A stretch of 64,000 nt of DNA from Owenia fusiformis (lineage: Eukaryota; Annelida; Polychaeta; Sabellida; Oweniidae): positions 5,618,001-5,682,000 of the forward strand of contig CAIIXF020000002.1 in the NCBI GenBank assembly GCA_903813345.2, read 5' to 3'. Position 1 is the first letter of the stretch. The number at the start of each line of letters is the position of its first letter. This document shows, one piece after another, positions 2,086 to 41,031 of the stretch. A model generated the notes under the pieces. It was not told the DNA's origin. It did no database searches and was given only the letters and a program-made list of their open reading frames with translations. The position numbers were made by a program, and so were the translations under genes.

Positions 2086-5000
2086 CTGAAATAGTATACA
2101 CAAAATGAATAATTCAAGAGCATTTTAAAGACTTCAAAAGTTCTGAATAGTAATTTTTCTGTATCATGGAGGATTTTTACTAAGTCCATGTAAACTCAAC
2201 ATGAAAGAATAAGAAGAAATACAGATCTATTAGTTTTGGGATTCAAGAGAAAGGAAAAACTTCTGAAAATAGACACTCAGTATTAAAACAGATATTCCAA
2301 TTGTTTCAGGTTGATACATTAAACTTACATGTTGCGGATGTCGTGCAGATTTTCTTTGTTTTTTTAGTGCCCAGCCCATGTCTGCTGTTACAGGGCCTCC
2401 AGATTCAACATTAGGAGCTGCAATGTAGATAAGAGATATTGAATATAAGGAAAGAGCGAAACAAAGATATACCAAATGACCGATTAGGAAATGTTAATTT
2501 TATTCACATTTCTATTGATCATTTTTCCCCCTACCATCTGAGAGTGAATTATTTTTATGAGAACATGTTTCACTGAACTACACAATTTAGATCGGTTGAA
2601 GATTTAACAAGTATTTAAGTTTTGGCAACAATTTTAAAAGATCACAAGGCATTAATATGACAAAATGTCACCACCACCTAAAAAAGGGTTGGAACAACGG
2701 CGGGACATAAACCAAATCTTGTCATCAAATTTCCAGGATAACTGCTTACCTGTTCAACTTGAAATTTTTACAGATGCAAGAGCAGACTAGTACCAAGATC
2801 TGATTAGGTTAAGGGCATGCTGGGTAAACTACATGGCGGCCATTTTGAATTTTTCAACAAATCTTGTCATCAAAATTCCAGGAAAACCACTTATCCGTTC
2901 AACTTGAAATTTTTACAGATGCAAGAGCAGACTATTGCCAAGATCTGATTAGGTTTTGGGTATGCTGGCTGAATTACATGGTGGCCATTTTGAATTTTTC
3001 AACTTGCTCCAAATTGACCAATTTTTTTTTTAAAAACATCTACAAGTTCTCAGAAGTTCAAATCTGACCTTAGATTTCAGATTTGACCTTTCATTCACCT
3101 TCAGTGACCTTGAAAAGGTCAAAAAAGTTGATTTTCTAAATTGATATTTTGGATTTAAATTTAGGTCAGCTTAATTACAAAACACCTACTGAGGTCTGAA
3201 AAAGTTAAATTTCAAGGTCGAAGGTCAAGGTCATTAAACTAGGTCACAAATGATGTTATTCAAGTTTCTCAAAGTTTGAGACTACAAATCAATTCTTGTC
3301 ATCAAAATTCCAAGAAAATCGCTAACCTGTTCAACTTGAAATTTTTACACATGCAATAGCAGACAAGTGCCTAGATCTGATTAGGTTTAGGGCATGCTGG
3401 GTAAACTATGTGGCGGCCATTTTGAATTTTTCAACAAATCTTGTCATCAAAATTCCAGGAAAACCACTCATCCGTTCAACTTGAAATTTTTACAGATGCA
3501 AGAGCAGACTATTGCCAAGATCTGATTAGGTTTTGGGTATGCTGGCTGAATTACATGGTGGCCATTTTGAATTTTTCAATTTGGCGGCCATTTTGAATTT
3601 TTCAACTTGCTCCAAATTGACCAATTGTTTTTGTAAAAACATCTACAAGTTCTCAGAAGTTCAAATCTGACCTTAGATTTCAGATTTGACCTTTCATTCA
3701 CCTTCAGTGACCTTGAAAAGGTCAAAAAAGTTGATTTTCTAAATTGATATTTTGGATTTAAATTTAGGTCAGCTTAATTACAAAACACCTACTGAGGTCT
3801 GAAAAAGTTAAATTTTCAAGGTCGAAGGTCATCAAATTAGGTCACAAACGATGTTATCTAAATTTTCCCAAAGTTCCAGACTACAAATAAATTCTTGTCA
3901 TCAAAATTGCAGGAAAACCGCTAACCTTGTCAACTTGAAATGTTTACAGATGCAAGAGCAGACTAGTGCCAAGGTCTGATTAGGTTTTGGCCATGCTGTG
4001 TAAATTGCATGGTGGCCAGTTTGCTCTTCAAAGTGCGATATTTATCACTGTGTGTCTTGTTTAACCTTGAGAAGGTCATTGAAGGTCAAATCTAAAATCT
4101 TAAGTAAGATATGAACCTTTTACAACTTGTAGATGATCCAGAAAAAAATTAAAGTCAGTCTAAACAGTATTTATTGGAAGTTGTATGAAATTGTTACAGA
4201 CGCCAGACGCCAACCGCTGTCACAAAAAACGGAGACCATAACAATATGTCACCACTTTTGGTGATGACATAATAAGTGTACGTTATCAATTATATGTTTG
4301 TTGTCCCATTACACATCTCAATTCAAAGATAACCCAGATGCAGAGAACTGTTTTTCATAACACAAATGGTCAGGGGTCACATGCATTTAAAACTGAAACT
4401 GAACAATTACAGTATTACTTCAACTTGAAATAAACTGTAAAACGACATATTTAATCACTGTACGTCGTCGATGGTTAGGCGATTTGTTCAACTCAGATAG
4501 ATTTAAGTGTTGACTAATTTGAATTAATTTTACCTTTAGTACTTCATTCAATTTGATTAATGATGTTTCATCTGTTTCTGTCTGAGACCATGATGATCCT
4601 TGTGACATTGAACTCAGGGTCAGACTCTCTGGTTGAGACTGCTCTTGTTGAAGGGCTGCATCCATATAAGAATTGTGGTTTTTGCGGCAAGTGGCACACA
4701 TTGCTGAAAAAAAGGAATGATGATTGAAATGAAATACAATGTCCCTCATATTGTTTGAATATTGATTTTAATTTAGGGACCAAGTCAGTGCAGTTTTAGA
4801 AACTAAAGTAATTTTCTTGACCCCTTGATCCCCTCTTGAAACAAACGTGAGATAGATTGATTTTCAAAATGTTCAATGTAAAAATGATAAATTAATGACA
4901 TTAACTAACCAAACAAAAATGACCATTGACTCCCTCCTCACAAATTAATCAAATCTATAGTATATTTCAAAATGCAATGCAATGGAAATCAAGATCAGTA

Positions 5001-7232
5001 TCCAAACAACAATTATATTAAAAAATGTGGTCAATTAAAATTAGATCCATTTGTACCAAGTTATCTTTATGAACAATACTTATAAACAACTAACTTATGA
5101 AAAGAACAATATCAGGGGTGTTTTACATTTCAACCCTTACCAAAGGGCTGGGTTATATGTTTTCATGTATTTATCCTATATATACACGCCCGGTGATCGT
5201 GAAAATGGGACGGAGGGGGGAGCAGGCAATTTCCGCTAGAAAATTCAACAAATCTGGAAAAAAAAAATTTTCAAGACAGAGTTTACGATTGAATTGCAAA
5301 TTGAATAAGCGCACGGTATGATATAATATGTTAGGTATTCTAGGATTTTTTTTCAATCGATACTCTTCTAAGATATAAGATCTATTAAAAAAGGCGCAAC
5401 GCAACCAACGTGCAAAAGTCAAAGTTTTTGCTATAAATCAAGCAACAATGGACTTCACGACCTGTAATAAATACTTTATCATATCGTTATCATAACTAAA
5501 TTAATGTCATTGCTGAATTTATAAAATAAGTTTCCATACGTAAAATAAAAAATAATCGAAAATAATTAAAATGGGACGGAGGGGGGGAGGGGACGGAGGG
5601 GGGGAGCAATAATTCTATAAAGTGAAACAACTTCACACGAATTCTTGTATTTGAAAAATGAACTCATTAACTTAGTAAGAAACTGGATGATATACCCCTG
5701 GAGACTTAAAAATGGGGACATTTGGAGTAAAAGGACTAAAAGTCGCGAAACATCTCTAATCATGTCTTATATACATATTGCTCCCCCCTCCGTCCCCTCC
5801 CCCCTCCGTCCCAAATTCATTATTTTCGATTATTTTTTATTTCACGTATGGAAACTTATTTTATAAATTCAGCAATGACATTAATTTAGTTTTGAAAACA
5901 TCACTTACAAGTATTTATTACAGGTCGTCCAGACCATCGTTGCTTGATTTATAGCAAAAACGTTGATTTGTGCCTGTTGATGGCCTTGCGCCTTTTTTAA
6001 TAGATCTCATACCTTAGATGCGTATCGTTTCAGAAAAAATCCCAGAAAACCTAACATATTCTACCATACCGTGCGCCTATCCATTTAGCAATTCAATAGT
6101 AAACTTTTTCTTGAAAAAATAAATCTTCCAGATTTGTTGAATTTTCTAGCAGAAATTGCCTGCTCCCCCCCCCCCCCTCCGTCCCATATTTAGATCACCG
6201 GGCGTGTATATATATATATATGGATGTCTGAAATTCTGAGCGATTTCTCAACTGAAACCGATTTCATTGACATTTTTAGGAATAATAGAGTGTCATGTAA
6301 GGAAGAACTAATCTTAAGAGCAATATGTCCACTACTCAAAATGAAATATGGTTTAAGATATCCTCTGCTCTTAAGAAATATCATTTTTATATTACCAAGG
6401 ATGATATTGACTATCTGCCTGTCTGCACGAGATATTGAATATTCAATATTCACATTAGGGAGCAGGCGACCAATATTCAATGTTTTATGAGAGATGTTAT
6501 TTTTATCCACAAGAGGTTATTCGATATCCACCAGTGAGCATAGTGAGTTATACTGGATAAATATGATTGGATGAAATCATACCTGAATTTTGAATGGGAT
6601 TTTATATAGTAATTACCTATGATTACCTGGTAGACAGAGTAACCGTTCATTGTCATTTTGTTACTTTCAATGAATAGTTTAAAATTGGAGATAAAACAAT
6701 TTTCAGAGCAGAGGATACAAACCAATAGCCTCATTGCCTGGTTATTTTATTTAGATCTAATGATGTCCCAGGACTGATGATGAACCACATATATTTCTTT
6801 TTGTGGCCCTTGTCGACCAAACAGTAACACTCACATCAGGTACCTTAAACAAACAAGCAGAAATAATTGAAGTTACCTACCTCCACCAAACATGCCAGTT
6901 ACTCCCCATGTCAAAAAAATATCCCTGGCAAATGACAAACTGATTGGGCGGTCTTCTGGCTTTCCTTTTCCAGTATGACAAGGGTGCTGACAGAGTCGAG
7001 ATGGCCTGAAGTGTATACCATATGTCATCCTATGTTTGTTACAAATGTAAAGTGTTGATTCTGGACCAGAAAAAATACCTCCTCTGTATAATAACAGTTT
7101 AACTTCATTGACATTATCATTTTTATGTTCTCTCCAAAGCTTTAAATTTTTTAGGTGATTCTCCGTTTGCCTTTTACAGTCCTCTAATGGTACAGTGTCT
7201 CTCTCCTGGCAATACTGTACAAGGCAATTCAT
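1777..7232 (-). CDS. Multi-exon gene of unknown function with Cys/His-rich region (possibly transposon-borne)
   Basis: Four exons are proposed on the - strand: 7232-6881, 4703-4534, 2417-2329 and 2085-1777. The first begins with ATG and ends in phase 1 before GTAGGT. The second starts after a polypyrimidine tract and CAG and supplies the two missing bases, so this join is solid. Across the join lie ICNKHR, CQHPCH and CATC, a C-H-C-H-C-C arrangement suggesting a zinc-binding module. The third exon gives a basic lysine/arginine-rich stretch. The fourth gives a polar C-terminus rich in Glu/Gln ending ILSKQET. The frame from exon 2 to exon 3 does not match (phase 0 into an exon needing phase 1), so an exon is missing or broken; a 1.6-kb repeat element is inserted in that intron. 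I do not recognise the family. Its position inside a putative 14.9-kb element makes a transposon-encoded accessory protein plausible. Confidence 0.5.
2329..2417 (-). CDS. Exon 3 (provisional), Cys/His-rich gene
   Basis: It is bounded by TTGCAG upstream and the strong donor GTAAGT. Read with two bases completing a previous codon, it gives PNVESGGPVTADMGWALKKQ and more basic residues, all open, and joins exon 4 in phase 0. It cannot follow exon 2 directly: the phase-0 reading meets a stop after nine codons. Confidence 0.45.
2646..4273. mobile_element. Non-autonomous element, family 'GTCACCACC', copy 1, with internal two-level tandem repeats
   Basis: It starts AAGGCATTAATATGACAAAA followed by TGTCACCACC. 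It ends with a stretch containing ACGGAGACCATAACAATATG and then TCACCACTTTTGGTGATGAC. The same two ends bound 56561-58814. Inside, a block beginning CTTGTCATCAAA recurs at 2716, 2863, 3295, 3440 and 3894. This is a ~146-bp duplication nested in a unit of about 580-600 bp. There is no coding capacity. It sits in the intron between exons 2 and 3 of the - strand gene. Confidence 0.75.
4534..4703 (-). CDS. Exon 2, Cys/His-rich gene
   Basis: It begins after a T-rich tract and CAG and completes the split codon left by exon 1. It encodes MCATCRKNHNSYMDAALQQ followed by a Ser/Gln/Thr-rich stretch and LIKLNEVLK, then the donor GTAAAA. 170 bases: two, then 56 full codons, ending in phase 0. Confidence 0.55.
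5184..6207. mobile_element. Fold-back transposon (1.02 kb, long inverted arms)
   Basis: The outer ends are ACACGCCCGGTGATC at 5184-5198 and its exact reverse complement at 6193-6207, set in TA repeats. Arms of roughly 420 bases (about 5184-5610 and 5780-6207) mirror each other with scattered mismatches. They include GGGACGGAGGGGGG runs and the ATTATTTTCGATTATTTTTT stretch. The loop is about 170 bases. No gene. A partial second copy lies at 20810-21112. Confidence 0.8.
6881..7232 (-). CDS. Exon 1, Cys/His-rich gene
   Basis: ATG at 7230-7232 opens 117 codons plus one base, followed by the donor GTAGGT. The product is hydrophilic and ends with NKHRMTYGIHFRPSR, CQHPCH and an aliphatic/glycine stretch, with His and Cys spacing typical of metal binding. 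No signal peptide is seen. Confidence 0.6.
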
Positions 7233-9565: not shown

Positions 9566-11284
9566 ATTCACCTTTCCACAAAGTAAAGAAAATCGATAAT
9601 TTCCGGCGCGCTGATTGGTTGTATGCAAATGAGTCAAATCAATGACGTCAATGATGGAAAGTTTTGAAGAATTAGTACAGCTAGCATAGGAATATTTTGA
9701 ATTAACTGCTATAAAAAGGATTCTATTTGCCAACGTACTAATTATTTTTAAGCAAACATGAAATATTGACGGGGCACTTTCTTTCCGAATCTTATGTAAT
9801 TTAATTTAATCATTTTTTTGACAGAACTATTGTTTATTAAGACTTCTCAGATCAGCCTCACATACCCGGGCTCACGTGTCTCGTGCGATTGTAAACAAAA
9901 AATGTAAATTGTGAAGTTACAAACATCGGCTAAATTATCTGATAGTGGTCATACACTATCCTGTTAAATGGTTATTATGTCGTAATAAGAAGTTCCATCA
10001 GAAATTCACCATGAGTGACATTTGCGCAAAGCGTTACCTTTTGGTATTTATTCGCCATCAGCGATGTCAATAATGATCAGCAATCTCAACATATCATCAA
10101 TAAACATTATATGATATACGCTCTTTCTCTGAAATCTTCCCAGTCATCATTATTCAAAACCGATCATCACATATCTAATTTATCCAATGACAAGTGAGGT
10201 TTCACAAGGAAAAATCGGGACACCCATATCCATGTTTGATTTCAAGCGTTCTCATTCTCATTATTTTCAAGAAATCCATCATCATTTTAGTTAAGAAAAA
10301 TTCTACGGTCTGCTGGATCTATTTTGACAGTTTTGCTTTAGCAAGATATTTTAACAAATTGACTGTTTCTACACTGAATAAAAAACATTTTCCCGGGGAT
10401 ATTTGGATCGGGAGATACGCAGCGGGAAATATACATTGGAATATATATACATGTTTAACCCATACTTGGACGTATATTGGACGTATATTGGGAATATTTG
10501 AGAGAACAGGAAAATCCGCCCACGGCCAAGAAAACAAAACTGGACATGAATATTCTAAAATATTTGGCCAATATAATATATTTTCCCTCGGGACCTTCGG
10601 CCCTCGGGCAGATATATTATAATTGCCTTGGGATAATCCCAATATCCTGAACCTCATGTAGGATAACCTCTATATATGTCACGCTCCTCTAAGATATCAA
10701 TTCTATATCCCGATGTTTTCAAGTATAATATTTTCAAGATACGATCTGATATGACTTGCAGAAATAAATATGAAGTAATCGTTTAGTTGATTGAATTATG
10801 GAAGTAGTGAAGTCAATGATTTAATGAATAAGAGCAAATGTTTTTAATTTGAACAGGTCATTCATCAAATGACACTGAAGATTAACTTAAAATAGATTGT
10901 CTATCTATATATTTTTATGCATAAGAGACATGTTATAATGTTGGTGAACTAATGATTATGATAATTTCACCTGTTCACATCATGATTGAAAACTGACCGG
11001 GAGTAATTCTTTTCAAATTATTTCCTCATTATGAAGAGACATTTAATATTTAAATCGCTTAGAAGGCGTAAATAAATGTCAATTTGACGTTCAATAAAAA
11101 TCTGTCAATAATTTACTAATTACTTGCACATTTGAAGAGGTAAAACTTACAGCAATCAACCGAGGATTTACATGTTAACTCAATTGCATTTGTTTTTCGC
11201 GGGAAAAAGTTTCAGTCATTGACGTCACAGATTTTTAAGCAGCTCATTATAATATTCATGAGCTGACTTTGTGGAAAGGTGAAT
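9566..11284. mobile_element. Short-TIR DNA element, 1.72 kb
   Basis: A perfect 19-base inverted repeat, ATTCACCTTTCCACAAAGT, lies at 9566-9584 and 11266-11284. GACGTCA(A)TGA-like sequence lies shortly inside both ends. There is no transposase reading frame, and a palindromic GC-rich module (10380-10640) sits in the middle. No convincing target duplication. Confidence 0.55.
10380..10640. repeat. Palindromic CCCTCGGG module, copy 1
   Basis: It contains CCCTCGGGACCTTCGGCCCT followed by CGGGCAGATATATTAT and GGGATAATCCCAA. Both strands stay open across it because the sequence is nearly self-complementary (opposed frames of 142 and 112 codons), so neither frame is a gene. A close relative lies at 38510-38770 and a looser one near 50850-50950. 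Confidence 0.5.
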
Positions 11285-11806
11285 TCGATCAAAATTTGCC
11301 ATGCAAACATGCTAGTCTACTTTACTGGCCCTCCTTGCTGTAACAAGGAACCCAAAACACATTAAAACGTAAACATAAACCAATTAGTCACTTCATTATG
11401 AAAGTGAGGGGTGTACGCTGTGTGCATGGACTAACACAATATCAGTGGTCATTTACTGTGTCAACTTAGTAACTCTTGCATATCGTGCTCACTCAAGTAT
11501 TGAATAATTTTTTTATGATTTAAAGCTGGACTTCCCTCCGAAACGCAATCTTGGGTTGTTTCGGGGGTGAACTTTATCATTTTGAGCTTAATGAAAGATC
11601 ATAGAATGATGAACAAATGGGGCAAATCTTGTGTAGAAATACTTACGATAAATGTGTCATTTCAACGATTTTTCATTGAATTTGCTTTGATCGGTGCCGG
11701 CGATATGATTTTGGAAAGGTTTCTAAATGAAGAACGTGACGTCACTTCCGAATCATAGCATTCAAAATAAGTAGCGTTCAATTACTTCCACCCTTAGCAA
11801 GAACAC

Positions 11807-11830
11807 GATGGTGTAGGGGTAGAATCCTCG
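11807..11830 (+). pseudogene. 5' half of a tRNA-Gly-like gene (A box)
   Basis: The sequence TGGTGTAGGGG at 11809-11819 fits the RNA polymerase III A-box consensus. It is followed by TAGAATCCTCG, as in the D arm and anticodon stem of eukaryotic tRNA-Gly. The match stops abruptly after GAATCCTCG (11822-11830). The acceptor side (CGATG) only partly pairs with the 3' half found 1.7 kb downstream. Confidence 0.5.
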
Positions 11831-11919
11831 GTTCTTGTGCCATGCTCACCTACACGGGAATTTTAAAAATGCAAATACAAGTGTATCATTCGTATCACCC
11901 ACACCGGAAATTTGAAGTG

Positions 11920-13345
11920 TAATTTACGAGTGCATTATCCGTAGTTGGCGTAGTCAACATACTATCATGTAGTTAGTTCAATAAAATACCCGTAGCAGAC
12001 GTGGAGATACATACGGTGGATCCTATGGTGTGTATGTATACCTATAGACTCATGTTTTGATGTAGCAAGCGTAGTAGGCGTAGTAAACATACTATGATGT
12101 GGTTATTTTCAATAAAAATACCCGTAGCAGACGTACAGATGTACCTAGGGTGGACCCTACAGTGTGTATGTATACCTATAGACTTATGTTTTGATGTAGC
12201 AAGCGTAGTTGGCGTAGTAAACATACTAGCAGACGTAGACATACCTAGGGTGGGCCCTACAGTGTGCATGCATACCTATAGACCCCTGTTTTGGTGTAGC
12301 AAGCGTAGTTGGCGTAGTCAACATACTATCATGTGGTTATTTGCAATAATATACCCGTAGCAGACGTAGCTATACCTAGGGTGGACCATGACAGTGTGTA
12401 TGTATACCTAGAGACCGATGTTTTGGTGTAGCAAGCGTAGTTGGCGTAGTCAACATACTATCATGTGGTTATTTTCAATAAAATACCCGTAGCAGACGTA
12501 GCTATACCTAGGGTGGACCATGACAGTGTGTATGTATACCTATAGACCACTGATTTGGTGTAGCAAGCGTAGTTGGCGTAGTCAACATACTATCATGTGG
12601 TTATTTGCAATAAAATACCCGTAGCAGACGTAGCTATACCTAGGTTGGACCATGACAGTGTGTATGTATACCTATAGACCAATGTTTTGGTGTAGCAAGC
12701 GTAGACATACCTAGGGTGGGCCCTACAGTGTGCATGCATACCTATAGACCCCTGTTTTGGTGTAGCAAGCGTAGTTGGCGTAGTCAACATACTATCATGT
12801 GGTTATTTTCAATAAAATACCCGTAGCAGACGTAGCTATACCTAGGGTGGACCATGCCAGTGTGTATGTATACCTATAGACCAATGTTTTGGTGTAGCAA
12901 GCGTAGTTGGCGTAGTCAACATACTATGATGTGGTTATTTTCAATAAAATACCCGTAGCAGACGTAGCTATACCTAGGGTGGACCATGACAGTGTGTATG
13001 TATACCTATAGACCACTGATTTGGTGTAGCAAGCGTAGTTGGCGTAGTCAACATACTATCATGTGGTTATTTGCAATAAAATACCCGTAGCAGACGTAGC
13101 TATACCTAGGTTGGACCATGACAGTGTGGATGTATACCTAGAGACCAATGTTTTTGCCATGTGTACCCTGGGTACAGCTACGTCTGCTACGAGTATTTGA
13201 TTGAAAATGACCACTTCATAGTATGTACTGTGTTGACTACGCCAACTACGCCTGATACACCAAAACATGAGTCTGTAGGTATACTCACACACTGTCATGG
13301 TTCACCCTAGGCCTACGCCAACTACGCTTGCTACACCAAAACATG
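11920..13345. repeat. 132-bp satellite array with inverted tail
   Basis: The landmark GTAGCAAGCG recurs at 12428, 12560, 12692, 12894 and 13026, spaced 132 bases apart. Shortened units lie at 12196-12297 and 12692-12762. Each unit also carries CCCGTAGCAGACGTAG, ATACCTAGGGTGGACC and GTGTGTATGTATACC. About nine to ten units are present. From about 13150 the sequence turns into reverse-complement half-units, so the array end can fold back. Frames reading through it are artefacts. Confidence 0.85.
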
Positions 13346-13538
13346 ATCAGGGTACATTACGTATGTACGCGTGATATTACATGTTGGTTGCGCTTTCTAC
13401 ACATGTGCGAGCCTACCAAAGCCACATTTGTCTGCATGTTACAGAAATCATCACGAAATATGTTCACCTATCTATGGGATTGTAACATGGGCATGTTATA
13501 TTGATACATGTCAAGTAGGTGATCACCGCACACGTGCC

Positions 13539-13588
13539 GAATCCTCGCTTACCACGCGGGAGGCCCGGGTTCGAATCCCGCATCCGCC
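13539..13588 (+). pseudogene. 3' half of a tRNA-Gly-like gene (B box, acceptor, Pol III terminator)
   Basis: It starts with GAATCCTCG, the same nine bases that end the 5' half at 11822-11830. It continues with an anticodon arm CTCGC/GCGGG around a loop reading ACC, a T arm with a perfect B box GGTTCGAATCC (13568-13578), and the acceptor strand CATCCGC. A run of T follows immediately. Layout and sequence match eukaryotic tRNA-Gly. The 5' half is missing here, and CATCCGC has no full partner upstream. Confidence 0.65.
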
Positions 13589-13593
13589 TTTTT

Positions 13594-14814
13594 ATTTTTT
13601 TAACTAAATGATTGTTCTTTGATATTACGCAGAAAAAAACAATTTTTATTTACATAAACTTTATATTAGAGCTTGAAAATGTAAAAACAATATATGTCAA
13701 CATATTGCGTTTTGGAGCGATGTGCAGGTTTAAATGTTTGTGGTTTATAAAAAAAAAGTGATATGTTTTAGTTAGAAATACATTAATTAATATATTCATT
13801 CAAACAGCACTAGAATGCGGGAAGAAAGAGCAATGGTGACAAAATGCAGACAGAATTTTCCGTAAGGGTTTCAATCATTTCTAAACACAATCATACATGT
13901 ACTTCATGTGTACTGTTATTTTTAGTGCTATATTTATAGATATAATTTCACGTATTAAAATCATATTTTCCAGCAATGACTTCAAATTCGGAACCACACC
14001 CATATTACATTTTCTTCAATAACTCCAAACATGTGTAAACATTGACCATGTGCATATAAATTCAGATTTCATGAGCTCTCTATTCGAGTACCTCATATAC
14101 CCCTGCATGGATTGAGTTGGATTCGCCTTTTATACGTGAGCCGACACAATCGCAAACGCTGATTGGATAAAGATTGCGAGAATCTTTAAACCTAAAGATA
14201 CGAGAAAAAGAGGATCGATCGCTCAATCATGTCTTAAGCACTCTGCAATGGACTGGTGATATAATAAAGTGCTGCAGGCCATTTCAAATTGGTTGACACC
14301 AAATGGCTAGAGGTTAACATTCAAAGTGATTCCTTACAACCTGTTTTTATCCAGTTTCTGTAAAGAAAGGACAAACTCAATCTAAGTGTACAATTACACA
14401 GAAGATAATATCTCGGAAGGATTGAAGAGTGCAGAGAATGAAGACCTCGTTGACAAAGGTGTAAAGGGTGGAAGGTGAGACATGTTCCAGTGCATGTAGG
14501 CCTTAGAGGCGGAACATCATGTTGAGAGAACTAGGTCTGAACTAGGTCTGAACTTCAAGATGGCATAAAGGAAATAGGTTGGATGGTTGAGTCATGCTCC
14601 ATGTGAATGTGGTAATGACCAATCAAATCAAGTGTCATGCTTAACAATGGCAATTGTAACCAATTAAATCAGGTAAACCGTATGAGGGTGAGCAACTGAT
14701 GATGGACAAATGACTACTGGAACAAACCTCGACCACTTGACCTTGGAAGATACCATAATCACCAGCCAACATTCTTCATAATGCCTAAAGATATGGGTAC
14801 ATATATATATTTAT
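13594..14814. other. No gene recognised
   Basis: AT-rich sequence with no long or protein-like open frame, no tandem repeat and no inverted repeat that I could identify. Confidence 0.35.
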
Positions 14815-17525: not shown

Positions 17526-17603
17526 ATCATAGTTAACAACTTTTAAAAGTCTGAAAAACAGTATCTCGGCCGACAAGCGACGTTACACGTTTCCTCTGAC
17601 ACA

Positions 17604-17927
17604 ATGACTAACATATGCTTAATACTCGCAGTATTCAGTGTGTCAAACACTCGTGGTTTGGCTGTTAATTTTACATATACAACGGATAGTACTACACAAG
17701 TTGTGAATAGCAATGTAGTTATGAACAGAAATGGGGATAATACCACGTTCTTCGTTGATGACAACCGAACTACCATACTAGTGGGGAACCTTATAGGTTT
17801 CACCACCAGTACCGACTATGATTTGGAGGATGCGATCTGTCAGTTTGCCGAAAGAGCGATTCAAGATGTCAACAAAGCTACAGAATTGTTTCCAATGTTT
17901 AAACTTAAATTAGATCCATGCATTGAC
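17604..17927 (+). CDS. Receptor exon 1: signal peptide and start of ligand-binding domain
   Basis: The ATG at 17604 begins a hydrophobic leader (MTNICLILAVFSVSNTRG). NFT, NTT and NRT glycosylation sites follow, then the LIGFTTSTDYDLEDAICQF stretch and FKLKLDPCID. The donor is GTAAGT and the exon is 108 codons, phase 0. The start is chosen because the leader directly follows it and no upstream in-frame exon is visible. Confidence 0.8.
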
Positions 17928-20900
17928 GTAAGTGAGAAATCATTGTCTAATGTCATGAAATCGGAAAAAGACAATAGTTGGGATAGAAAATATGAGACTC
18001 AGAACAAGGCATAGCCATTATATTTGGTAACATTTTTGCAAATATTCTTGACACATGTAGTATACCTGATGACTATAGTCAATTAATGGTCCACGGTGCG
18101 TTTGTTCGTTAGATAACGTTTTCAACGTGAAATTGTTGGATGTCAAATACATTTATTTAGTAGTATTATTACATTTTCAGGAGTCGAATGTCGCCTCTGT
18201 AAACGGCAGGTTGTGGGACTACATCTACCGAGGTCGTGATACACCTTTTATGTTAAGCTTTTGGCAAGGTCAAGCTGCGACGATACCAGTATGCGCTAAA
18301 TGGGGATGCATCTTTTTTAAAGAAATAAAATAGAGAGGTATAATATTTTAAAACAATTTTAAGGCAAAGAAAAACACAATTTATGCCGGTATATTATTTC
18401 AAATGTGTACCTTCTGTTTACATATTAGTTTAGATGACAAGAGCTACAAAGTTCGTTCGTTGAGGTGTATACCATTTGCTTGATATATAATCTTATCCCA
18501 TATTACCACTCCTTTGTGGTGAAGTACACCCTGGAATATTTTTGATATTGAAAAAATCACATTGTCCTGCCCAATTTCGCTCCCGAAAATCGCATTAACC
18601 CCCCCAATCCCGTTCATGAAAATGGTATTCATCTTCCAGGAATCTTTTCCTTGCTTCTTATTTCATTCAGTTGGGTCGATATGGCGTGCTATAATGATTT
18701 TTAGAAACGATAATATCCAAACAATATTAAGAATAGAGATTTTGAATTGTAAGAACTATGAAGATTGTTAGCATATTCACGGTGACCAAGAGTTAACAGT
18801 GCAAATCGGCCCGGTCGTGTTTTTTTAAACTCTTTAGTCGTGTTTTGTTGAAAATTTGAGAGGTAGGTTGATAAATTTGGTCATGAAATTGCTGTCACTT
18901 GACTTTATGTAAAAGTAAGTAATTTATATTGCTTTCCATACTATATATCTAAACTTCAGGTATTCGTAAACGTGTTATTTGCACGAATCGTATGCTATAG
19001 TCTTGTTATATCGGGAAATGAGCAATTCTGTCAGTGTTATACATATTTTGCCTGAAAATCACTTGCCTGACTTGTATTCAATGAATACATCGATTCATAA
19101 GGAAAGCATTCACAATATGTGCGAAAATCAAAAGTTAGAAGAGCTTAAATAAGTAGCAATTGACCGAATAATATTTTTTAGATTAAACTCTTTAGACGTG
19201 TTGAAAAGATTGCGGTTAATGACGTTGACCTGTTAGTGAAACGTTCTAGACGTGTAGAGACATTGAGGTTTAACGATTTGGAAGTGGGAAACAGCACAAT
19301 TAACACAACGAGAAACACTATATAATAAACTCCAATACGACGAGATAATATATTTGTTATCCAAATTGATTAATAAGTAATAAGATCAGATACTGTTAAA
19401 TAACATTCTGCCCGGGATTTGTTATTGTCGTATACAAACGTGGTATCCGAACTGCTTACTTATAGTATCCGTTGCGACCATTAACAATATTGTAAATGTC
19501 TAATTAGCTATTGTAAATAAACATGTCGTCACAGTCACTGTTGGCTATGGAGAGTTATTAATAATTATCGATCATAAATGTTATCATACTTTTTTGATTT
19601 AAATATCCAAATATTTACTATGTTTAAAAATGAAAATGTTTGATTTTTAAGTAACTGTTCGACCTTTTTTCTTATTATCAAGAACGCGCATGCAAGTTCG
19701 GCAATCCTTGTACATTGTGTGCACAGTATGCGCATTTTAATCGTTGTATTTTTCTATATACTATAATACTATTCATTTTTTGTACAATTGAACCGAACAT
19801 ACTTTAAAATCATCAGCTTTAAATAGATTATATGTTACGAAATTAGCCTTAATATAATTCGTGCGTTTGTAAATGCTCTCAATAAAGAAATAGACCAAAA
19901 TACGCAAGTTTACTTTGAAGTTTCTTTTATCGTCTTTTGTCATTAAACTTTAATGTTCTATCGATAAAATATGTGGAAATACCAGAAGAAGCATTGGAGT
20001 AGGAGAGTTCAACTAGAAGACAGCAACCCCTTGGAAAAAGCAATAATATTATACTACAGAATAATTATACTTTTAATATTAGGAGGCTCTCATTTATTCT
20101 CGGACCAAAAGCGATTTTATACCCGAACATCTAATTCTCCAGCTGAATTTTTCAGGAATAAAAAGTTCACAATGATCATGCTTTTTGTAAGATAAATACT
20201 GCTTATCCTCGGCCCGTTCACTAATTAACCGTTTGTCATCAAATGACTACAAGAATCTGTTACGTATCACAGCCAAGTCATTTTTATTTGAAATAAAGAA
20301 ATTATTTATTTATTCTTCGATTTGAACGTGAAATATATTTTAAAGTATGACGTAAAATTACAGAAATGCGCCCCTCCCCCTCCCTTCCTGGCATGAACTA
20401 TTTACATTATTAAACAGAAATAAATGCGTATTACGGGATTGAGACGTTTGATGACAGTGACTATTTCCCGTCACCTGCATTGATTGCATCATCATGGGAA
20501 AACGGGATTGAGTCTATATTGAACTAATTAATTAGAAATCGATAGATATTTTTGTCTACATGCTCATTTACCTCTAAGTGGTTAAAATATCAAAGAACTA
20601 GGACGTCGGTTTTTAGATAGGCTGTAATCATAAATGTACTGACTGCAGGGCCTTACCCGGGGGGGGGGTCACCATTCTCAGCACTTTTCAAGTGATTGCG
20701 GGGCCATATTTGTCAAATGTAAACCCCCTTGGAAAGTTTTGAAAAGTGCCCCCCCCCCCCATTGACAAAATGTGATTACGGTCCTGCACTTTTTACAAAG
20801 CTTTTAAAAACAGGTCGTGTAGAATGTAGACCCCCGTTGCTTGATATTTATAGCAAAAACATTGACATTTGAAAGTTAGTGACGCTGCGCTATTTTGAAT

Positions 20901-26900: not shown

Positions 26901-29900
26901 GTCAAGAACGTAAATAAATTTATTTAAAATGAGAGGAAATGTTTAGTTTGTGATGCACTACATGTAAATGCATATATATGATCACCTAATGTAAGGAATA
27001 ACTCCACCATTATTAAAATCGTATGCTCAATATCTATTAGGTTTGCCTCAGGATTTTTAACAATTTGATTCGATGTTATTCCCTAATTCGCCTCACACAA
27101 TGCAATACAATTTCAATTTTAATTTTCAAATTGCAATAGGTAAAAAACGCTACATATGCTGCTATCGTTCTATGAGTGATCTATGAACTGTAGTGTAACA
27201 TAGTTTTCTAGCGAATTAAATTACAATATCTGTTGATCTTGTTAAATCATATATCTGTCTTTTTTATTTATTCATATCTTGACTACTAATTACAATAAAC
27301 GGGTGACACATAATGTATATTCCCGTGTTTAGTACTAATACGATTATTTTCAGAAGCACAGACAAATTATTAAGCAACAAAACATGGTCAATGTGAACAA
27401 TATTACAAGACAATTCAAAGTCGTTAATTTTATCACGTCTAAAACGTTATCTTTACAATTCCAAAACGTTAACATGCTTATTATAAGACACGTCCATGAC
27501 GTTATATTGTCCCTTCTCCATAGTTAACTCCACTTTCTACATTTACGGTCATTTATGGTAATTTTAAGATAAATACAGTTAAAATATTTACACGATCTTT
27601 AGAGAAGTGAATATTATTCCACGTTGTTGAATGGATTGTCTGTTTAAACTTGATTAAATAACACTAAATGCAAATTAAGTACATATTTCTGGCACTTTTG
27701 GTATATAATTGCGATTGATATGAAGTATGATGGATTTATCCCCAAAATAGATTCGTTGGTATGAAGAAGAACATCTTAGGTAGAAGTCAAGATATGTAAG
27801 TTTGTAAAATATAGAATGGTACCATTTTGCTCCATTCTATCGAATGTCGCATCCCATGTTCTTACAAAACACGACTAAAGTGTTTAAAAAAACACGACCG
27901 GGCCGATTTGCACTGTTAACTCTTGGTCACCGTGATATTTAAGCGAATCATAATTTCATCTTCATGCTCTGGCACGGACATTCGACGTCATAGAAATCCG
28001 AGCAATACGAGAATGCCCTATGATGGACATGCATACATAGTGTTGAAAATGGCTCCGGAGTATCATACTTCAAAATGTAGCATTGCTTGTTTAACTTTCT
28101 AATGGTACGATATAGTGACATGACACGATAATATTTACACATGGTTTCAGCATATTAACTATGAAGGTATAAATGAGATGTTGATATATTTGGTCTTTTT
28201 AATTATTTTATCAAAATAATGTTAAACGGAGCAATTGCAGATGTGAACTGTGAAAATGCTCCGTCACAGCTGACAAAATATATTGTTTTTTATAAAAAGA
28301 ATTAAAAAGACCCTATGCATTAATATCTCATTAATACATTCAAAGTTATGCTGAAAACATATATTAATATTATCGTGTCATTATATCATGCCATTAAAAA
28401 GTTAAAAAAGAAATGGTACATTTTAGAGTTTGATACTCTGGCGCCGTTGTCAATAGATTTTACTCATAGTGTTATTGGACTTCAAACAGAAGTGAAGGTT
28501 ACTCAAATTATATATTCATTGCCTGGAGTAAGTACTTTTCTTTGATATAACGATACATATGAGTTAAAGAATAAATCGTGTGAATTGATACACATTGTTG
28601 GGCGTAGCCAGCTTTCAGTCAGGGGGTGCTCTTTTCTTCGTCTATCTCATGGTTCTATTTCTATTGGTTATTGGCGATCGCACCCATCGCACATCCGCCC
28701 TCCCGCCAATGCATCTATTGAATGCCAATGGCCTATGCTGTGCATGTAATGACTTTCCATGGGAGCGTGTCTCTGGCCTTTTTAGATTATGCCTAGTGTC
28801 CCACTTTGCCTCGTTTTGAGTCTGAAGTAGCAAAAATCCATAATTTATAACATACGTCATGGCTTAAATACCGTATGCTATGGTTAAGTGAAAATTTGTC
28901 AAAAATATCATATTTTACCACTGATTACAAAAATACCGTTTTTATTTTGACATGTTATCCTATGAATATCATGCTAACTATGTAATGATAATAGTTTCCC
29001 ACTGATTCATAATATTATATACATATTATATATTTTTTTTCGAGATCCAGGCGGTGAATATTTATGAATATGTTATTAAAATAATTTTGGTTTCCCATTG
29101 TGAATGATCAAAAAATGTGAAGAGAATCTGAATTGTGCAATATTTAAAAATATTCATTTTCTCATTGAAACCCTTACTTTGTTATACAATGTCATCAATA
29201 TATCCTTTCATCTAGATTTTTCAGGAAAATCTGAATTTTAGAAAAGGGTAATCGACAGCGGTGTTCTACCTTAGAAGATGCACTTATTGTTAAAAAAAAA
29301 ACTTTTTCAGAGCGCACTTTCCTTCCGCACAGAGTATAACAACCAAAACTATAAATACTATACTAGAACAGTTGCTGAAAGCTCATTTTGTTCATTTGCT
29401 TTCGATGCCATTATTCAGCATTATACATGGAACAAGATAGGGCTGTTGACCTACAATTTTGGGGAAGCGGCTAAGGTAAGGATTTGCTTTTTTGAAAAAG
29501 AAAGAATAAGACAATTGTGAAATAAAAAATGAATACTTCTTCCAGTGAACTCAAAACCTTTTTAGAATAATAATATTGACATACAATGACATTTTCGATG
29601 ACAATACTAAAGTTTGCGATTTTAATATCAGTTGAGGCAAATGCACATGTTTTCCATAAATTTTCAGTTTTTATTAATTAAAAATATATCTTTAAAACAC
29701 ACCCTTGATAGCAAATTGTAGCCTCTATGCTTTTTTACAAGGATACTAGTATTTAAGATAGGGGCAAGTTGAAGAAAGAACTTATTTATTCCTTTTTATT
29801 TCCACGATTAGGCAGCTGCTGTGTTGAGGAACGAGCTTAAGAAAAGAAACGCGACCGTAGATGCCGATGTTCTCTTTACATTCGATGAAGGATCACCTGA

Positions 29901-38900: not shown

Positions 38901-41031
38901 TTATTGCTCTTTTCGACGACGGAATCCTTTTGAATATGTATCGACTGAGCACGGGGAATTAGATAAATATACATATTTGCTCTGTCTTGGAAATTGTTTT
39001 GTTCATTGTGGTGGTTGATTAATAAGTAATGCTATTTATTTCAGAAAGTGATAAAGGAAGGATGGTTGGTATTCATTTTCTTCATGCTCATTGTCGCTGA
39101 TGTCATAGTAGTTTGCATTTGGTTTGTCATGGATCCATTGTATCCAGTGTCTAGAGAACTAGAATCAAATGTTAGTGCCATGTATATACTTTAATTTAGT
39201 TTTGTACTTGGAGGCGTTGGAAACACAAACCATCGAACTAAACCCTTTATCTAAAATCGACCGTATATAATTTATTTTGACATAAATTGGGCTTCAATTT
39301 TAACTACACCTTGTTTATGTTTATCCCGAAATTAGTTCTTGAAAGTAGTGAACATTTCCTTTAGAATTTGAAAAGAGTGTCACATGTTTTGTATGCCTTT
39401 TTATATATGGGTAAATGTACAATGATTTATATTTTTTAATATAGTCAAATTCTGTTATTCTACCATCATCTTTGCGCCATCTGTGTTAATATCAACAACA
39501 TTAAATGTGTACTATTTTGGTTGGTATCAACACAATTGGCTACCGTGCCCTTCTTATAATATTGACATACTAAAACGCATTCTTTATATGAGAATGAAAT
39601 ATTAAACAATCCTATTTTGAGGGCTGGTAGCAAACATGCTTTTGAACAAGTTGGAAATCAACGGAGCACATGTTTATATCGCATGGTCATGAGAACCAGT
39701 TGTGTTGACAATAAAGTACCACTGATTAAATGTCGTTGACATTAACACACATGCTGCAGGGTTTGGTAGAATAACAGAATTTGACCATATTTGAAAATAT
39801 CAATTATCGTTAATTTTCCCATATTGCGTTATTCCAGCTTAACGATGACACATCTGTCAGAACAATAACGGTAATGATTGGATGTGAATCGGTGTATAAA
39901 ACGTACTTTCTCATAGCCATATTTTGTTACAAGGCAGTTGTGTTGTTGTTGGGTGGTTTCATAGTTTGGCCAGCATTGTAAGTAAACGTATTATCCTGTA
40001 TCGAGACGCATCAAAATGTTAAACATGAAAACAATTTTAGCTAGGCATTCGAACCTCTCATAAATATTTGTTTAGTAAAACATAAAATACTACGATGAAT
40101 ATTTTTTGAACATTATTTAACTGGTTCAAATGTGATATTTCTATTCAGAAATAAACGCAAATAATGACCTGAACTAAAAAATTTAAAAATTACTCATTCC
40201 AGGTTTATGTCAGTGAAGAAGGGATTTCATCACTTCTCTGGATTTGGTATAGCTGTATTCACCAGTTTTTTGGTCAGCATTGTACTGGTTGTTATTTCGC
40301 TCCTCTTACCAACTGAACCAAATGCCCAGTTCATCATCGTTGGAAGTCTGATATTGCTTACAACTTATTTGACTACATTACTGGTTTTTGTTCCAAAGGT
40401 AATGATTTATTTGCAGTATATATTATGTATCGTAAAATGAAGAAAGTGTGATTCATGCGTGTAGTAAGAAGAATACTTTCACGTTAGATAATGGTTTTGA
40501 AATATACAGTATATAGCATGTATTTTTCTTATGACTGGTAAACGCCAATAGTTTGTTTTTTTCGTGTTCCTGCTAGGTTCCATCACAACTTTTGGTCATT
40601 TTCTTTTGGCTTTTGAGCTAAGGTATTTGTAATAAATAAAACAAATCAAACAGAAAAAAGTAAAACTACATTTGCTTCATTACTTAGGTTGAAGTCCTAC
40701 GTTTAAAGAATTTGCACATGAGTTGTTGGATTTTTAAAAAAGATTCCCATTTTAGGCAATTATAATTTCAAGAGGAGATGACAGTCTTTCTCAGAAGTTG
40801 TTTTCTCCAATTGGTGCAGCGTTTGGTTTCTTAGACACAGTCGCAGGAGAAGGCCAGATGCCAGGATTGGGCGCTGATAGGTCATTGTCCATGCCTGGAG
40901 TCGCTCTTGCCGCAGGAAAGATTGAAAAAAGTGACCAGATGTCTACGTTGTATAATGCCTACCACCATTTCGGAAAGATTAATTCTGACAAAACTGGTCC
41001 GTTTGATGATTATTATTATAACTCCAAATAA
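17604..41031 (+). CDS. GABA-B-like class C G-protein-coupled receptor (16 proposed exons)
   Basis: Sixteen exons with consistent phases give a protein of about 832 residues. It has a signal peptide (about 1-19) and an extracellular Venus-flytrap ligand-binding domain (exons 1-9, to about residue 457) containing NxT glycosylation sites. Seven membrane segments lie in exons 10-15, followed by a 91-residue cytoplasmic tail. Family marks include LIGFTTSTDYDLEDAICQF near the N-terminus, YYTRTV before the second lobe, YDSVWAIAMAIN, and VFVPK at the end of TM7, characteristic of metabotropic GABA receptors. Unlike typical vertebrate GABA-B subunits, the tail is short with no obvious coiled coil. The sequence is divergent enough that ligand and partner cannot be named. 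Exon 2 has an awkward 3' end. The gene is convergent with the EGF gene and has large repeat-filled introns. Confidence 0.85.
18181..18288 (+). CDS. Receptor exon 2: ligand-binding domain (3' end uncertain)
   Basis: After a TTTTCAG acceptor it reads ESNVASVNGRLWDYIYRGRD and on through PFMLSFWQGQAATIP. The end at 18288 uses an in-frame GTATGC donor (36 codons, phase 0). However, the next ten residues (VCAKWGCIFF) also look like receptor sequence, and reading through reaches TAG at 18331-18333. No GT lies between the apparent true end and that stop. The authentic donor may be lost. Confidence 0.6.
20420..22815. repeat. Inverted ~190-base arms around 2 kb (nested element?)
   Basis: 20420-20610, containing GCATTGATTGCATCATCATG and GGATTGAGTCTATATTGAAC, recurs in reverse complement at about 22635-22815. 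The arms match for about 190 bases with small differences. The interior holds a fold-back fragment and homopolymer G/C runs. It may be one element with terminal repeats or two copies in opposite orientation. Confidence 0.55.
20810..21112. mobile_element. Partial second copy of the 5184-6207 fold-back element
   Basis: It resembles the right arm of the 1.02-kb element in order: TTGATATTTATAGCAAAAAC, TCTTCCAGATTTGTTGAATT, then CCCCTCCGT and a terminal GATCATCGGGCGTG. The left arm is not seen. Confidence 0.6.
22540..23440. repeat. G/C-run repeat with 'GGTCAGAATG' modules
   Basis: Long G runs alternate with CTGGTCAGAATG(C/T)A(C/T)CAAA and ATTTTCGAAATTT, which recur near 23090, 23150 and 23240 (roughly 60-95 bases apart). 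It ends with CTGGCTACGGGC, related to the ends of the 54612-54811 MITE. The open frames across it, rich in Pro/Gly/Arg, are a composition effect. Confidence 0.5.
23460..27860. other. Interior of the 9.16-kb element, no gene recognised
   Basis: AT-rich sequence without a convincing exon. Short open frames (for example 23478-23744, 24491-24718) have no recognisable motif and no splice context. If this element once encoded a transposase, that part has decayed beyond recognition by eye. Confidence 0.35.
27950..28550. repeat. Facing inverted repeat, ~250-base arms with similar reading frames
   Basis: 27950-28205 on the - strand and 28290-28550 on the + strand are alike. The shared stretch includes GACACGATAATATT, TTTTCAGCATA and GGTCTTTTTAATT. 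Frames in the two arms also resemble each other (SLYRTIRKLNKQCYILKYDT against SLYHAIKKLKKKWYILEFDT). It adjoins the right end of the 9.16-kb element inside receptor intron 2. It could be a fold-back element or an inverted duplication of a decayed coding piece. Confidence 0.5.
29311..29475 (+). CDS. Receptor exon 3: ligand-binding domain
   Basis: Acceptor TTTTTCAG, donor GTAAGG, 55 codons in phase 0. It encodes SALSFRTEYNNQNYKYYTRTV, then AFDAIIQHYTWNKIGLLTYN. This corresponds to the hinge and second-lobe entry of GABA-B-type Venus-flytrap domains, where the RTV/RT(V)P motif and a helix followed by W-x-(K/R)-(I/V)-G are conserved. Confidence 0.85.
29812..29922 (+). CDS. Receptor exon 4: ligand-binding domain
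   Basis: AAAVLRNELKKRNATVDADV, then LFTFDEGSPDVIWEPLK; acceptor ATTAG, donor GTAAAA, 37 codons, phase 0. It contains an NAT glycosylation site. Confidence 0.8.
31440..32120 (+). mobile_element. LINE (non-LTR retrotransposon) 3' remnant
   Basis: The frame at 31752-31946 reads RRQEMYLNRARVDLILKTQL and NCECGSPETFRHLF, the zinc-knuckle-like C-terminal region (C-x-CG-x-x-E-T-x-x-H) that follows reverse transcriptase in many animal LINEs. A shifted frame continues at about 31946-32080 with FNEAIMLIVDDISLYKTQQD and IIDLYLFGDPNS. Upstream, the same strand is coding-like but broken by stops. It is a dead 5'-truncated copy in receptor intron 4; the antisense frame at 31466-31819 is its shadow. Confidence 0.7.
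32160..34600. other. Receptor intron 4, no gene recognised
   Basis: AT-rich intron. A stretch at about 34300-34420 (TTCACGTTAGAT, GACTGGTA, TTGCTAAGTTCCAT, ACA..TTGGTC) resembles 40470-40615 in intron 15 and is probably a dispersed repeat. Short open frames around 33713-34298 have no recognisable domains. Confidence 0.4.
34607..34879. mobile_element. Tc1/mariner-type MITE, 273 bp
   Basis: The ends are CAGGGTGTCCCGAAAGTATG and, in reverse complement, CACTGTGTCCCGAAAGTATG, both running into CCCC, with TA immediately outside each end. Short TIRs starting CAGGGTGTCCC with a TA duplication are typical of mariner-derived MITEs. It lies 95 bases upstream of receptor exon 5. Confidence 0.85.
34975..35037 (+). 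CDS. Receptor exon 5: ligand-binding domain (21 codons)
   Basis: DIRVFVSFTPGTLTFGKLLC plus K; acceptor TTTCATAG, donor GTATGT-like, phase 0 on both sides. It matches the family's D-(I/V)-R-(I/V) strand and following helix, which carries a conserved Cys. Confidence 0.8.
35267..35476 (+). CDS. Receptor exon 6: ligand-binding domain
   Basis: LHNLGFYGRQYVLLTYFFAR at the start corresponds to the family motif G-(L/M)-Y-G-x-x-Y-V-W. It continues to LDGALGCSQMVTTLVGMYDN and ends TKQ. 70 codons, phase 0, donor GTAAAA. Confidence 0.85.
35706..35939 (+). CDS. Receptor exon 7: ligand-binding domain core
   Basis: It contains IVYDSVWAIAMAINATIRQE, the highly conserved YD-(A/S)-VWA-(I/V)-A helix of GABA-B-type receptors, and an NAT site. 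It ends GNLLDVEFEGLS before GTAAGA. 78 codons, phase 0. Confidence 0.9.
36063..36129 (+). CDS. Receptor exon 8: ligand-binding domain
   Basis: GKYYYEKSTGVRQFDSYIGL then FD plus one base; donor GTAAGT, phase 1 out. It fits the G-x-V-x-F strand near the end of the Venus-flytrap domain. Confidence 0.8.
36243..37065. mobile_element. Fold-back element, ~820 bp, in receptor intron 8
   Basis: AAAGGAGTGGTATCGATATG at 36285-36304 recurs in reverse complement at 37004-37023. Further mirrored stretches lie inside (TTTCCGAACCTCATTGGAAC against GTTCCAATAAGGTTCGGAAA) and outside (GGCCCAAATTTT against AAAATTTGGCC). Arms are long but imperfect, and there is no coding potential. Confidence 0.7.
37227..37316 (+). 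CDS. Receptor exon 9: end of ligand-binding domain
   Basis: It completes a split Ser codon and reads NGRLTYIGYFDKQNSNIVTK then PDDVVWKSK. Phase 1 in and out. The G-x-(L/M)-x-x-(I/V)-G-x-(F/Y)-D pattern and V-W-x-x-x-G close this domain in the family. Confidence 0.85.
37529..37679 (+). CDS. Receptor exon 10: linker and TM1
   Basis: GGAAPLDEEIKQYERKRISK is the pre-membrane linker. A hydrophobic segment TTIIVLSVFAGFGILLALIY then VLYAIV forms TM1. It ends within a codon (phase 2) before GTAATT. Confidence 0.85.
38002..38140 (+). CDS. Receptor exon 11: TM2 and first extracellular loop
   Basis: MIKDEWRIMTYVIVFGCIIL and DTYVLIHI form the first intracellular loop and TM2. GVHPEPLLGDLCK follows and carries the conserved Cys at the top of TM3. 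Phase 2 in, phase 0 out, donor GTAAGA. Confidence 0.85.
38398..38496 (+). CDS. Receptor exon 12: TM3
   Basis: ATTGLLIFGFTLVYGGMTLK then LWGIYKFFSQSKK. The F-G-F-T-L-x-(F/Y)-G-x-M-x-x-K-x-W pattern is the TM3 signature of GABA-B-like receptors. 33 codons, phase 0 both sides. Confidence 0.9.
38510..38770. repeat. Palindromic CCCTCGGG module, copy 2
   Basis: It shares GGCCCTCGGGCAGATATATT and CCTCGGGATAATCCCAA with 10380-10640, preceded by a self-complementary GATATTGATAT...ATATCAATATC stretch. Noncoding, in receptor intron 12. Confidence 0.5.
39045..39170 (+). CDS. Receptor exon 13: TM4
   Basis: KVIKEGWLVFIFFMLIVADV, IVVCIWFVMDPLYPVS and ELESN. The W-x-x-x-DP at the end of TM4 is a family mark. 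42 codons, phase 0; the donor is GTTAGT, weaker than the others. Confidence 0.8.
39441..39790. mobile_element. MITE, ~350 bp, in receptor intron 13
   Basis: A perfect inverted repeat beginning GTCAAATTCTGTTATTCTAC (22 bases in all) lies at 39444-39465 and 39764-39785. Partial matching continues outward. No coding potential. Confidence 0.75.
39838..39977 (+). CDS. Receptor exon 14: TM5
   Basis: LNDDTSVRTITVMIGCESVY is the second extracellular loop. KTYFLIAIFCYKAVVLLLGG then FIVWPA forms TM5, with the family's Y-K-(G/A)-x-(L/V)-(L/M)-L-x-G pattern. It ends in phase 2 before GTAAGT. Confidence 0.85.
40203..40398 (+). CDS. Receptor exon 15: TM6 and TM7
   Basis: It begins with FMSVKKGFHHFSGFGIAVF. 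TM6 is within TSFLVSIVLVVISLLL, and TM7 is within FIIVGSLILLTTYLTTLLVF ending VPK. The N-x-Q-F-(I/C)-I-V and VFVPK motifs are diagnostic. Donor GTAATG, phase 0 out. Confidence 0.9.
40756..41031 (+). CDS. Receptor exon 16: cytoplasmic tail and stop
   Basis: AIIISRGDDSLSQKLFSPIG opens the tail; it ends FGKINSDKTGPFDDYYYNSK before TAA. 91 residues, Gly/Ser/Asp-rich, with no heptad pattern. Acceptor TTTTAG, phase 0. Confidence 0.85.
   Translation, partial: AIIISRGDDSLSQKLFSPIGAAFGFLDTVAGEGQMPGLGADRSLSMPGVALAAGKIEKSDQMSTLYNAYHHFGKINSDKTGPFDDYYYNSK

What the first reader, a model, noticed from the sequence alone, without database searches (positions are those of the whole stretch)
11807..13588. 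tRNA-Gly-like gene split by a 132-bp satellite block with a 9-bp duplication at the break
Seen: a 5' half with a perfect A box ends in GAATCCTCG (11822-11830). 1.7 kb later a 3' half begins with the same GAATCCTCG (13539-13547) and carries a perfect B box, acceptor strand and T-run. Between them is the satellite. Together the halves reconstitute a tRNA-Gly layout with the nonamer counted once. Inference: something inserted into a tRNA gene with a 9-bp target duplication and later bred an array, or the satellite-bearing element targets tRNA genes. Dada-type transposons are known to target small RNA genes, but with shorter duplications.
Basis: partly seen in the sequence, partly recalled or inferred. 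Interest (0 to 1): 0.7.

Follow-up and report, generated by a model that had tools for sequence, protein, structure and literature searches.

The report
Satellite-bearing transposon inside tRNA-Gly relic
A small mobile DNA element, built around a tandem repeat that folds back on itself, has jumped into an old glycine-tRNA-like sequence and split it in two; it is a tidy example of a known kind of element, and whether it seeks out tRNA genes cannot be told from one copy.

Summary
The split is real. GAATCCTCG stands at 11822-11830 and 13539-13547. With the nonamer counted once, the joined flanks align without a gap, 48 of 55, to a recalled human tRNA-Gly-GCC across the break. ARAGORN calls tRNA-Gly at a 94% threshold, not at 96-100%. 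Two corrections. The acceptor stem pairs poorly, so the target was a tRNA-Gly relic or SINE-like core, not an intact gene. The insert has 24-bp imperfect terminal inverted repeats (18/24) whose register fits a duplication of 8 bp (or 6, 4, 2), not 9.

The insert (11830-13538, 1709 bp) is a foldback-like DNA transposon: a 132-bp array (11940-13154), then inverted copies (to 13344), folding strongly (z -19.4). The closest architectures in print are Rehavkus (Mutator-like) and Tetris (foldback, superfamily unsettled). Dada membership is not supported. An outer 32-bp inverted repeat with TTAA at both ends brackets the locus, so the tRNA core may lie in an older TTAA MITE of about 0.5 kb. No genome is held, so targeting is untested.

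The parts
11518..11549 (+). outer inverted repeat, left arm, with TTAA at 11520-11523
   Evidence: 27/32 inverted match to 13704-13735; score 39, reached by 0 of 256 random flank pairs, top 32; TTAA
11809..11830 (+). 5' part of tRNA-Gly-like core (T8 to the nonamer), A box
   Evidence: ungapped part of the 48/55 alignment
11822..11829 (+). left target site duplication GAATCCTC (8 bp; the ninth base G is also repeated)
   Evidence: exact repeat; register from the inverted repeats
11830..11853 (+). left terminal inverted repeat of the inner element
   Evidence: 18/24 against the right end; 19 of 26 at best offset, as good in 6 of 100000 random window pairs
11830..13538 (.). inner non-autonomous foldback-like DNA transposon, 1709 bp
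   Evidence: inverted repeats, duplication and split target
11940..13154 (+). direct array of 132-bp monomers, 11 full or partial copies; a 466-bp block duplicated at 97%
13165..13344 (-). inverted copies of the monomer (foldback arm)
   Evidence: 12950-13350 folds at z -19.4
13515..13538 (-). right terminal inverted repeat of the inner element
13539..13546 (+). right target site duplication GAATCCTC
13539..13580 (+). 3' part of tRNA-Gly-like core, anticodon arm (ACC) and B box
13589..13601 (+). T-rich run after the tRNA-like 3' end (TTTTTATTTTTTT), Pol III terminator-like
13704..13735 (-). outer inverted repeat, right arm, with TTAA at 13730-13733

Best explanation
A non-autonomous, foldback-like DNA transposon of 1709 bp inserted by cut-and-paste into a tRNA-Gly-derived core sequence and duplicated 8 bp of target. 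SHOWN: the split tRNA-Gly core, the direct repeat at the break, inverted repeats at the two ends of the insert, the 132-bp array with inverted copies, and a 466-bp block duplication inside the array. INFERRED: a transposase made elsewhere bound the ends and moved the element (most likely Mutator-like/Rehavkus, by duplication length and satellite architecture; a P-type foldback partner is the next guess); the array grew by unequal exchange or slippage; and the tRNA core was already a relic, probably inside an older TTAA-flanked MITE, when it was hit.
For: Exact nonamer at both junctions and no other exact copy in 64 kb. Ungapped 48/55 tRNA-Gly alignment across the empty site. Terminal inverted repeats 18/24; in a test allowing offsets of up to 4, 6 of 100000 random window pairs did as well. 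Array with inverted copies and strong folding. 466-bp duplication at 97%, while the other monomers are 87-97% like the reference monomer. Outer inverted repeat with TTAA. Published parallels, seen as passages: Tetris, foldback, 8-10 bp duplications, 220-bp tandem repeats in its arms (PMC4079207); Rehavkus, 9-bp duplication, minisatellite before the 3' inverted repeat (PMC6446971).
Against: Only one copy is available, so neither the ends nor the duplication length are confirmed by a second copy. No transposase is in hand, so the superfamily is a guess from architecture. The terminal inverted repeats are short and imperfect; by a local-alignment score on base-shuffled ends, without requiring position, 45 of 2000 shuffles did as well. 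The arms are lopsided: about 1.2 kb direct against 0.18 kb inverted. A 6-bp duplication fits the same register.
Confidence: 0.78

Rival explanations
1. A site-specific, tRNA-gene-targeting transposon of the Dada superfamily (a deleted derivative with an array), recognising tRNA-Gly.
For: It sits inside a tRNA-Gly sequence and its duplication runs into the anticodon stem. Dada families are found in tRNA-Gly among other tRNA genes. A 6-bp duplication (AATCCT) is allowed by the register, and apparent 8-bp duplications argued to be 6 bp are reported for Dada (PMC3706591, parts 1-3 of 4 read).
Against: Dada-U6 and Dada-U1 are reported to lack terminal inverted repeats; here they start at the duplication. 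The site, about nucleotides 22-29, is neither the reported 8-13 nor one of the reported anticodon-loop sites (PMC8869645, parts 1-3 of 5 read), though it borders the latter. The mimicry of the target by the element end, reported for Dada-U6 and U1, is absent at equal distance: 8, 6, 3 and 6 of 24 positions match in four comparisons, longest run 2.
Confidence: 0.1
2. A Helitron/Helentron-type element with a central satellite array, as reported in an oyster.
For: Satellite arrays built into Helitron/Helentron elements are discussed for Crassostrea gigas (PMC8268682, passages). The host here is not known to be a mollusc.
Against: Helitrons leave no target duplication (recalled); here a duplication and terminal inverted repeats are present.
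Confidence: 0.05
3. Two unrelated tRNA-like pieces (SINE or pseudogene fragments) that happen to flank a satellite array; no insertion.
For: The acceptor strands do not pair; the left half alone scores only 24, reached at one other place in the window; random left stretches with the true right flank still gave 14/300 tRNA calls.
Against: The halves meet in register, without a gap, at the shared nonamer (48/55). The inverted repeats abut the nonamers.
Confidence: 0.05

Closest known systems
Tetris, foldback transposon of Drosophila virilis (PMC4079207, passages)
   Same: non-autonomous, tandem repeats in the inverted arms, 8-10 bp target duplications, repeats that expand into satellite arrays
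   Different: Tetris has arms of up to 1,735 bp and about 220-bp units; here 24-bp ends and lopsided arms. Its transposase was not found, so its superfamily is unsettled. No sequence relation was tested.
Rehavkus, Mutator-like (PMC6446971, passages)
   Same: 9-bp duplication (8 here, 9 by letters), inverted repeats of 26-400 bp (24 here), minisatellite before the 3' inverted repeat
   Different: no transposase or PHD finger seen here; listed there from Arthropoda and Annelida only
Dada superfamily (PMC3706591 and PMC8869645, parts 1-3 of each read)
   Same: sits inside a tRNA gene sequence, next to the anticodon arm
   Different: terminal inverted repeats present; site about 22-29; duplication most likely 8 bp; no target mimicry; no transposase

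Membership tests
TIR (cut-and-paste) DNA transposon | terminal inverted repeats abutting a target site duplication | tested here: met
   18/24 inverted repeats in register with an 8-bp (or 6-bp) duplication; 6 of 100000 random pairs as good
Foldback-type element | inverted arms built of tandem repeats | tested here: met
   direct array plus inverted copies, fold z -19.4; arms unequal in length
Mutator-like / Rehavkus | 8-11 bp (Rehavkus 9 bp) duplication | tested here: inconclusive
   8 bp by register, 9 by letters, 6 or less not excluded
Mutator-like / Rehavkus | MULE transposase of an autonomous partner | not testable with these tools
   no genome held; the only stop-to-stop ORF of 90 aa or more in the element is a 99-aa frame through the array
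Dada | no terminal inverted repeats | tested here: not met
   terminal inverted repeats found; feature as reported for Dada-U6 and U1
Dada | 6-7 bp duplication | tested here: inconclusive
   the register allows 6, not 7; 8 reads best
Dada | insertion at tRNA nucleotides 8-13 or in the anticodon region | tested here: inconclusive
   site about 22-29, overlapping only the first bases of the anticodon stem; sites from PMC8869645
Dada | Dada transposase in an autonomous relative | not testable with these tools
   no genome held
intact tRNA-Gly gene (target) | complete cloverleaf with paired acceptor stem | tested here: not met
   ARAGORN at default finds nothing in the joined flanks; acceptor strands do not pair
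TTAA-type MITE (outer element) | terminal inverted repeats with TTAA duplication | tested here: inconclusive
   32-bp inverted repeat with TTAA on both sides, but inverted pairs of this strength are common in the window and no second copy is held

The most novel reading that the evidence does not exclude
A foldback-type, satellite-bearing transposon family that inserts site-specifically at the D-stem/anticodon-stem border of tRNA-Gly sequences: a second, TIR-bearing lineage of tRNA-targeting DNA transposons besides Dada, using tRNA-Gly cores spread by TTAA MITEs as its landing pads.
Probability: 0.1. Interest if true: 0.65.

Novelty: new member of a known kind. Interest (0 to 1): 0.33.

Why it matters
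If a family of such elements hits tRNA-Gly cores at one site, it would be a second lineage of tRNA-targeting DNA transposons beside Dada, and a route by which satellites spread through small-RNA genes. As it stands, the locus is a clean nested example: a satellite array inside a foldback-like transposon, inside a tRNA-Gly relic, inside a probable TTAA MITE.

Tried and rejected
Other copies: 6 of 8 allowed viral contigs pattern scans (exact patterns of 18 to 28 positions) and 2 of 2 genome-contig scans gave 0 hits each. Those collections are viral and prokaryotic, so this says nothing about the host genome. BLAST of the insert and flanks against the rest of the window (E up to 1) found no second copy of the insert or of the tRNA parts; it did show the outer inverted repeat.

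Rfam: 0 gathering hits in the window. At E up to 10 on 11700-13700 there was one match, to an lncRNA at E 7.9. Split halves are not expected to reach tRNA thresholds.

Four other arrays in the window were checked for flanking repeats. Longest exact direct repeats were 9, at least 14 (14 was the longest tested; the array's own repeat), 11 and 10 nt; best inverted scores were 17, 26, 27 and 19 against 39 for the outer repeat here. Their flanks were not joined and tested for tRNA halves.

Shared motif between monomer and element ends, as in Tetris: 4 comparisons, equalled by 247, 17, 188 and 29 of 300 shuffles, so not shown. Direct repeat closely around the tRNA core: none of 6 nt or more between 11741-11822 and 13576-13680.

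Pfam: 7 of the 44 listed ORFs were given, 1 had a hit. PDB sequence searches: 40168-40440 matched GABA-B receptors, 17547-18014 matched nothing.

Literature: 9 of 10 searches used. I saw titles and abstract starts; one search listed 20 of 23, 12 of 24, 8 of 9. No listed title or abstract start reports a MULE or foldback element targeting tRNA genes, or a TTAA MITE with a tRNA core. Passages of PMC10294476 (bivalve transposons) hold no mention of Dada or Rehavkus.

Full report
OBSERVATION. The window is AT-rich (GC about 0.31-0.44 in 2-kb steps) and eukaryotic-looking: an ORF at 40168-40440 resembles the last part of a GABA-B receptor (Pfam match below its cut-off; PDB E 2e-4). The nonamer GAATCCTCG is present at 11822-11830 and 13539-13547 and nowhere else exactly in 64 kb. 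Upstream of the first copy stands TGGTGTAGGGGTA; downstream of the second stand an anticodon arm, a B box and a T-run.

THE TARGET. With the nonamer counted once, the flanks align ungapped to a recalled human tRNA-Gly-GCC from T8 to about position 64 (48 of 55, score 75). Five other recalled tRNAs score 33-49. ARAGORN at its default threshold finds nothing in the join; at -ps94 and below it calls tRNA-Gly with anticodon ACC. The window itself has no call at 90 or above. Control joins at -ps90 gave junction-spanning calls in 0/300 (true left, random right), 14/300 (random left, true right) and 0/300 (both random), so most of the signal lies in the right half. The acceptor strands do not pair in the aligned register (AACACGA and ATCCGCC); ARAGORN uses an offset register with two acceptor mismatches and a 3-pair D-stem. 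Anticodon ACC is, as I recall, not normal in animals. The target was therefore a tRNA-Gly relic or a SINE-like core, not shown to be a working gene.

THE INSERT. I tested every sub-string of 2 or more letters of the nonamer as the duplication. The two ends of the insert match as inverted repeats in one register only, compatible with 8, 6, 4 or 2 bp. With 8 bp (GAATCCTC) the ends are 18/24 identical, with 8 in a row at the inner side. In a test that takes the best of nine offsets over 26 positions, the ends score 19 and 6 of 100,000 random window pairs do as well. A looser test, local-alignment score on shuffled ends without any demand on position, is equalled by 45 of 2000 shuffles. A 9-bp duplication is out of register; the ninth base is most simply a chance G shared by element end and target. 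The insert, 11830-13538, consists of 110 bp of unique sequence, a direct array (11940-13154, eleven full or partial 132-bp monomers, ten of them 87-97% like the eleventh), inverted copies (13165-13344), and 194 bp of unique sequence. A 466-bp block is duplicated in tandem at 97%, so the array grew in at least two steps. Single-stranded DNA of 12950-13350 folds at -123.6 kcal/mol against a mean of -45.5 for 100 shuffles (z -19.4). The only stop-to-stop ORF of 90 aa or more within the insert is a 99-aa frame through the array.

THE SURROUNDINGS. A 32-bp inverted repeat (27/32) at 11518-11549 and 13704-13735 brackets the whole locus, with TTAA at the outer side of both arms. Its score of 39 was not reached in 256 random flank pairs (top 32). 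Against this, inverted pairs within 4 kb are common in this window: 32 pairs outside the masked arrays score 30 or more, and this one ranks 17th. I read the outer element as likely, not certain. Without the inner element and one duplication it would be about 0.5 kb, a size usual for a MITE (TTAA duplication of piggyBac/Kolobok: recalled).

MECHANISM. Most likely a transposase supplied in trans cut the element out by its short ends and pasted it into the tRNA-Gly core with an 8-bp stagger. The array and its inverted copies were or became the body of the element. Shown: the target, the duplication, the ends, the array and the fold. Inferred: the transposase, its superfamily, and the order of events.

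COMPARISON. Foldback elements with tandem repeats in their arms and 8-10 bp duplications are known (Tetris, PMC4079207, passages; its own transposase was not found). So are Mutator-like Rehavkus elements with a 9-bp duplication and a minisatellite before the 3' inverted repeat (PMC6446971, passages). Dada transposons do target tRNA genes (PMC3706591, parts 1-3 of 4; PMC8869645, parts 1-3 of 5). But Dada-U6 and Dada-U1 are described as lacking terminal inverted repeats, Dada duplicates 6-7 bp, and in tRNA genes it sits at nucleotides 8-13 or around the anticodon. This insert fails the inverted-repeat feature; its site, about 22-29, is not among those reported but borders the anticodon arm; and the target mimicry reported for Dada-U6 and U1 is absent. 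I do not file it as Dada.

LIMITS. No genome is held for this window. The decisive test, other copies and their flanks, could not be run; contig scans in viral and prokaryotic collections gave 0 hits, as expected for a eukaryote. One insertion into a tRNA relic is not evidence of targeting.

Noticed in passing
9566-9584 / 11266-11284 and 9636-9665 / 11205-11234: Two nested inverted-repeat pairs bracket about 1.7 kb just upstream of the locus, probably another MITE-like element.
   Followed up: no
5177-5620 / 5767-6214: A 452-bp inverted repeat at 86%, a clear foldback or MITE.
   Followed up: no
18777-18848 / 27864-27935: A 72-bp inverted pair at 98.6%, 9 kb apart: the highest identity among the 85 repeat pairs listed.
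   Followed up: no
2995-4275 and 56650-58817: Pieces of the 136-bp array recur 54 kb away, in inverted and direct orientation, so this satellite is spread within the window.
   Followed up: no
60326-60342 and beyond 62027: The 119-bp array (60343-62027) has a 17-of-19-column inverted match (score 27) and an 11-nt AT-rich direct repeat in its flanks, weak hints of another element.
   Followed up: no
47511-50133: A 190-bp satellite array of about 14 copies; no flanking repeat better than a 9-nt direct match and inverted score 17.
   Followed up: partly
40168-40440: Exon-like ORF resembling the C-terminal transmembrane part of GABA-B receptor subunit 2 (Pfam 7tm_3 below its cut-off; PDB match E 2e-4).
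   Followed up: partly
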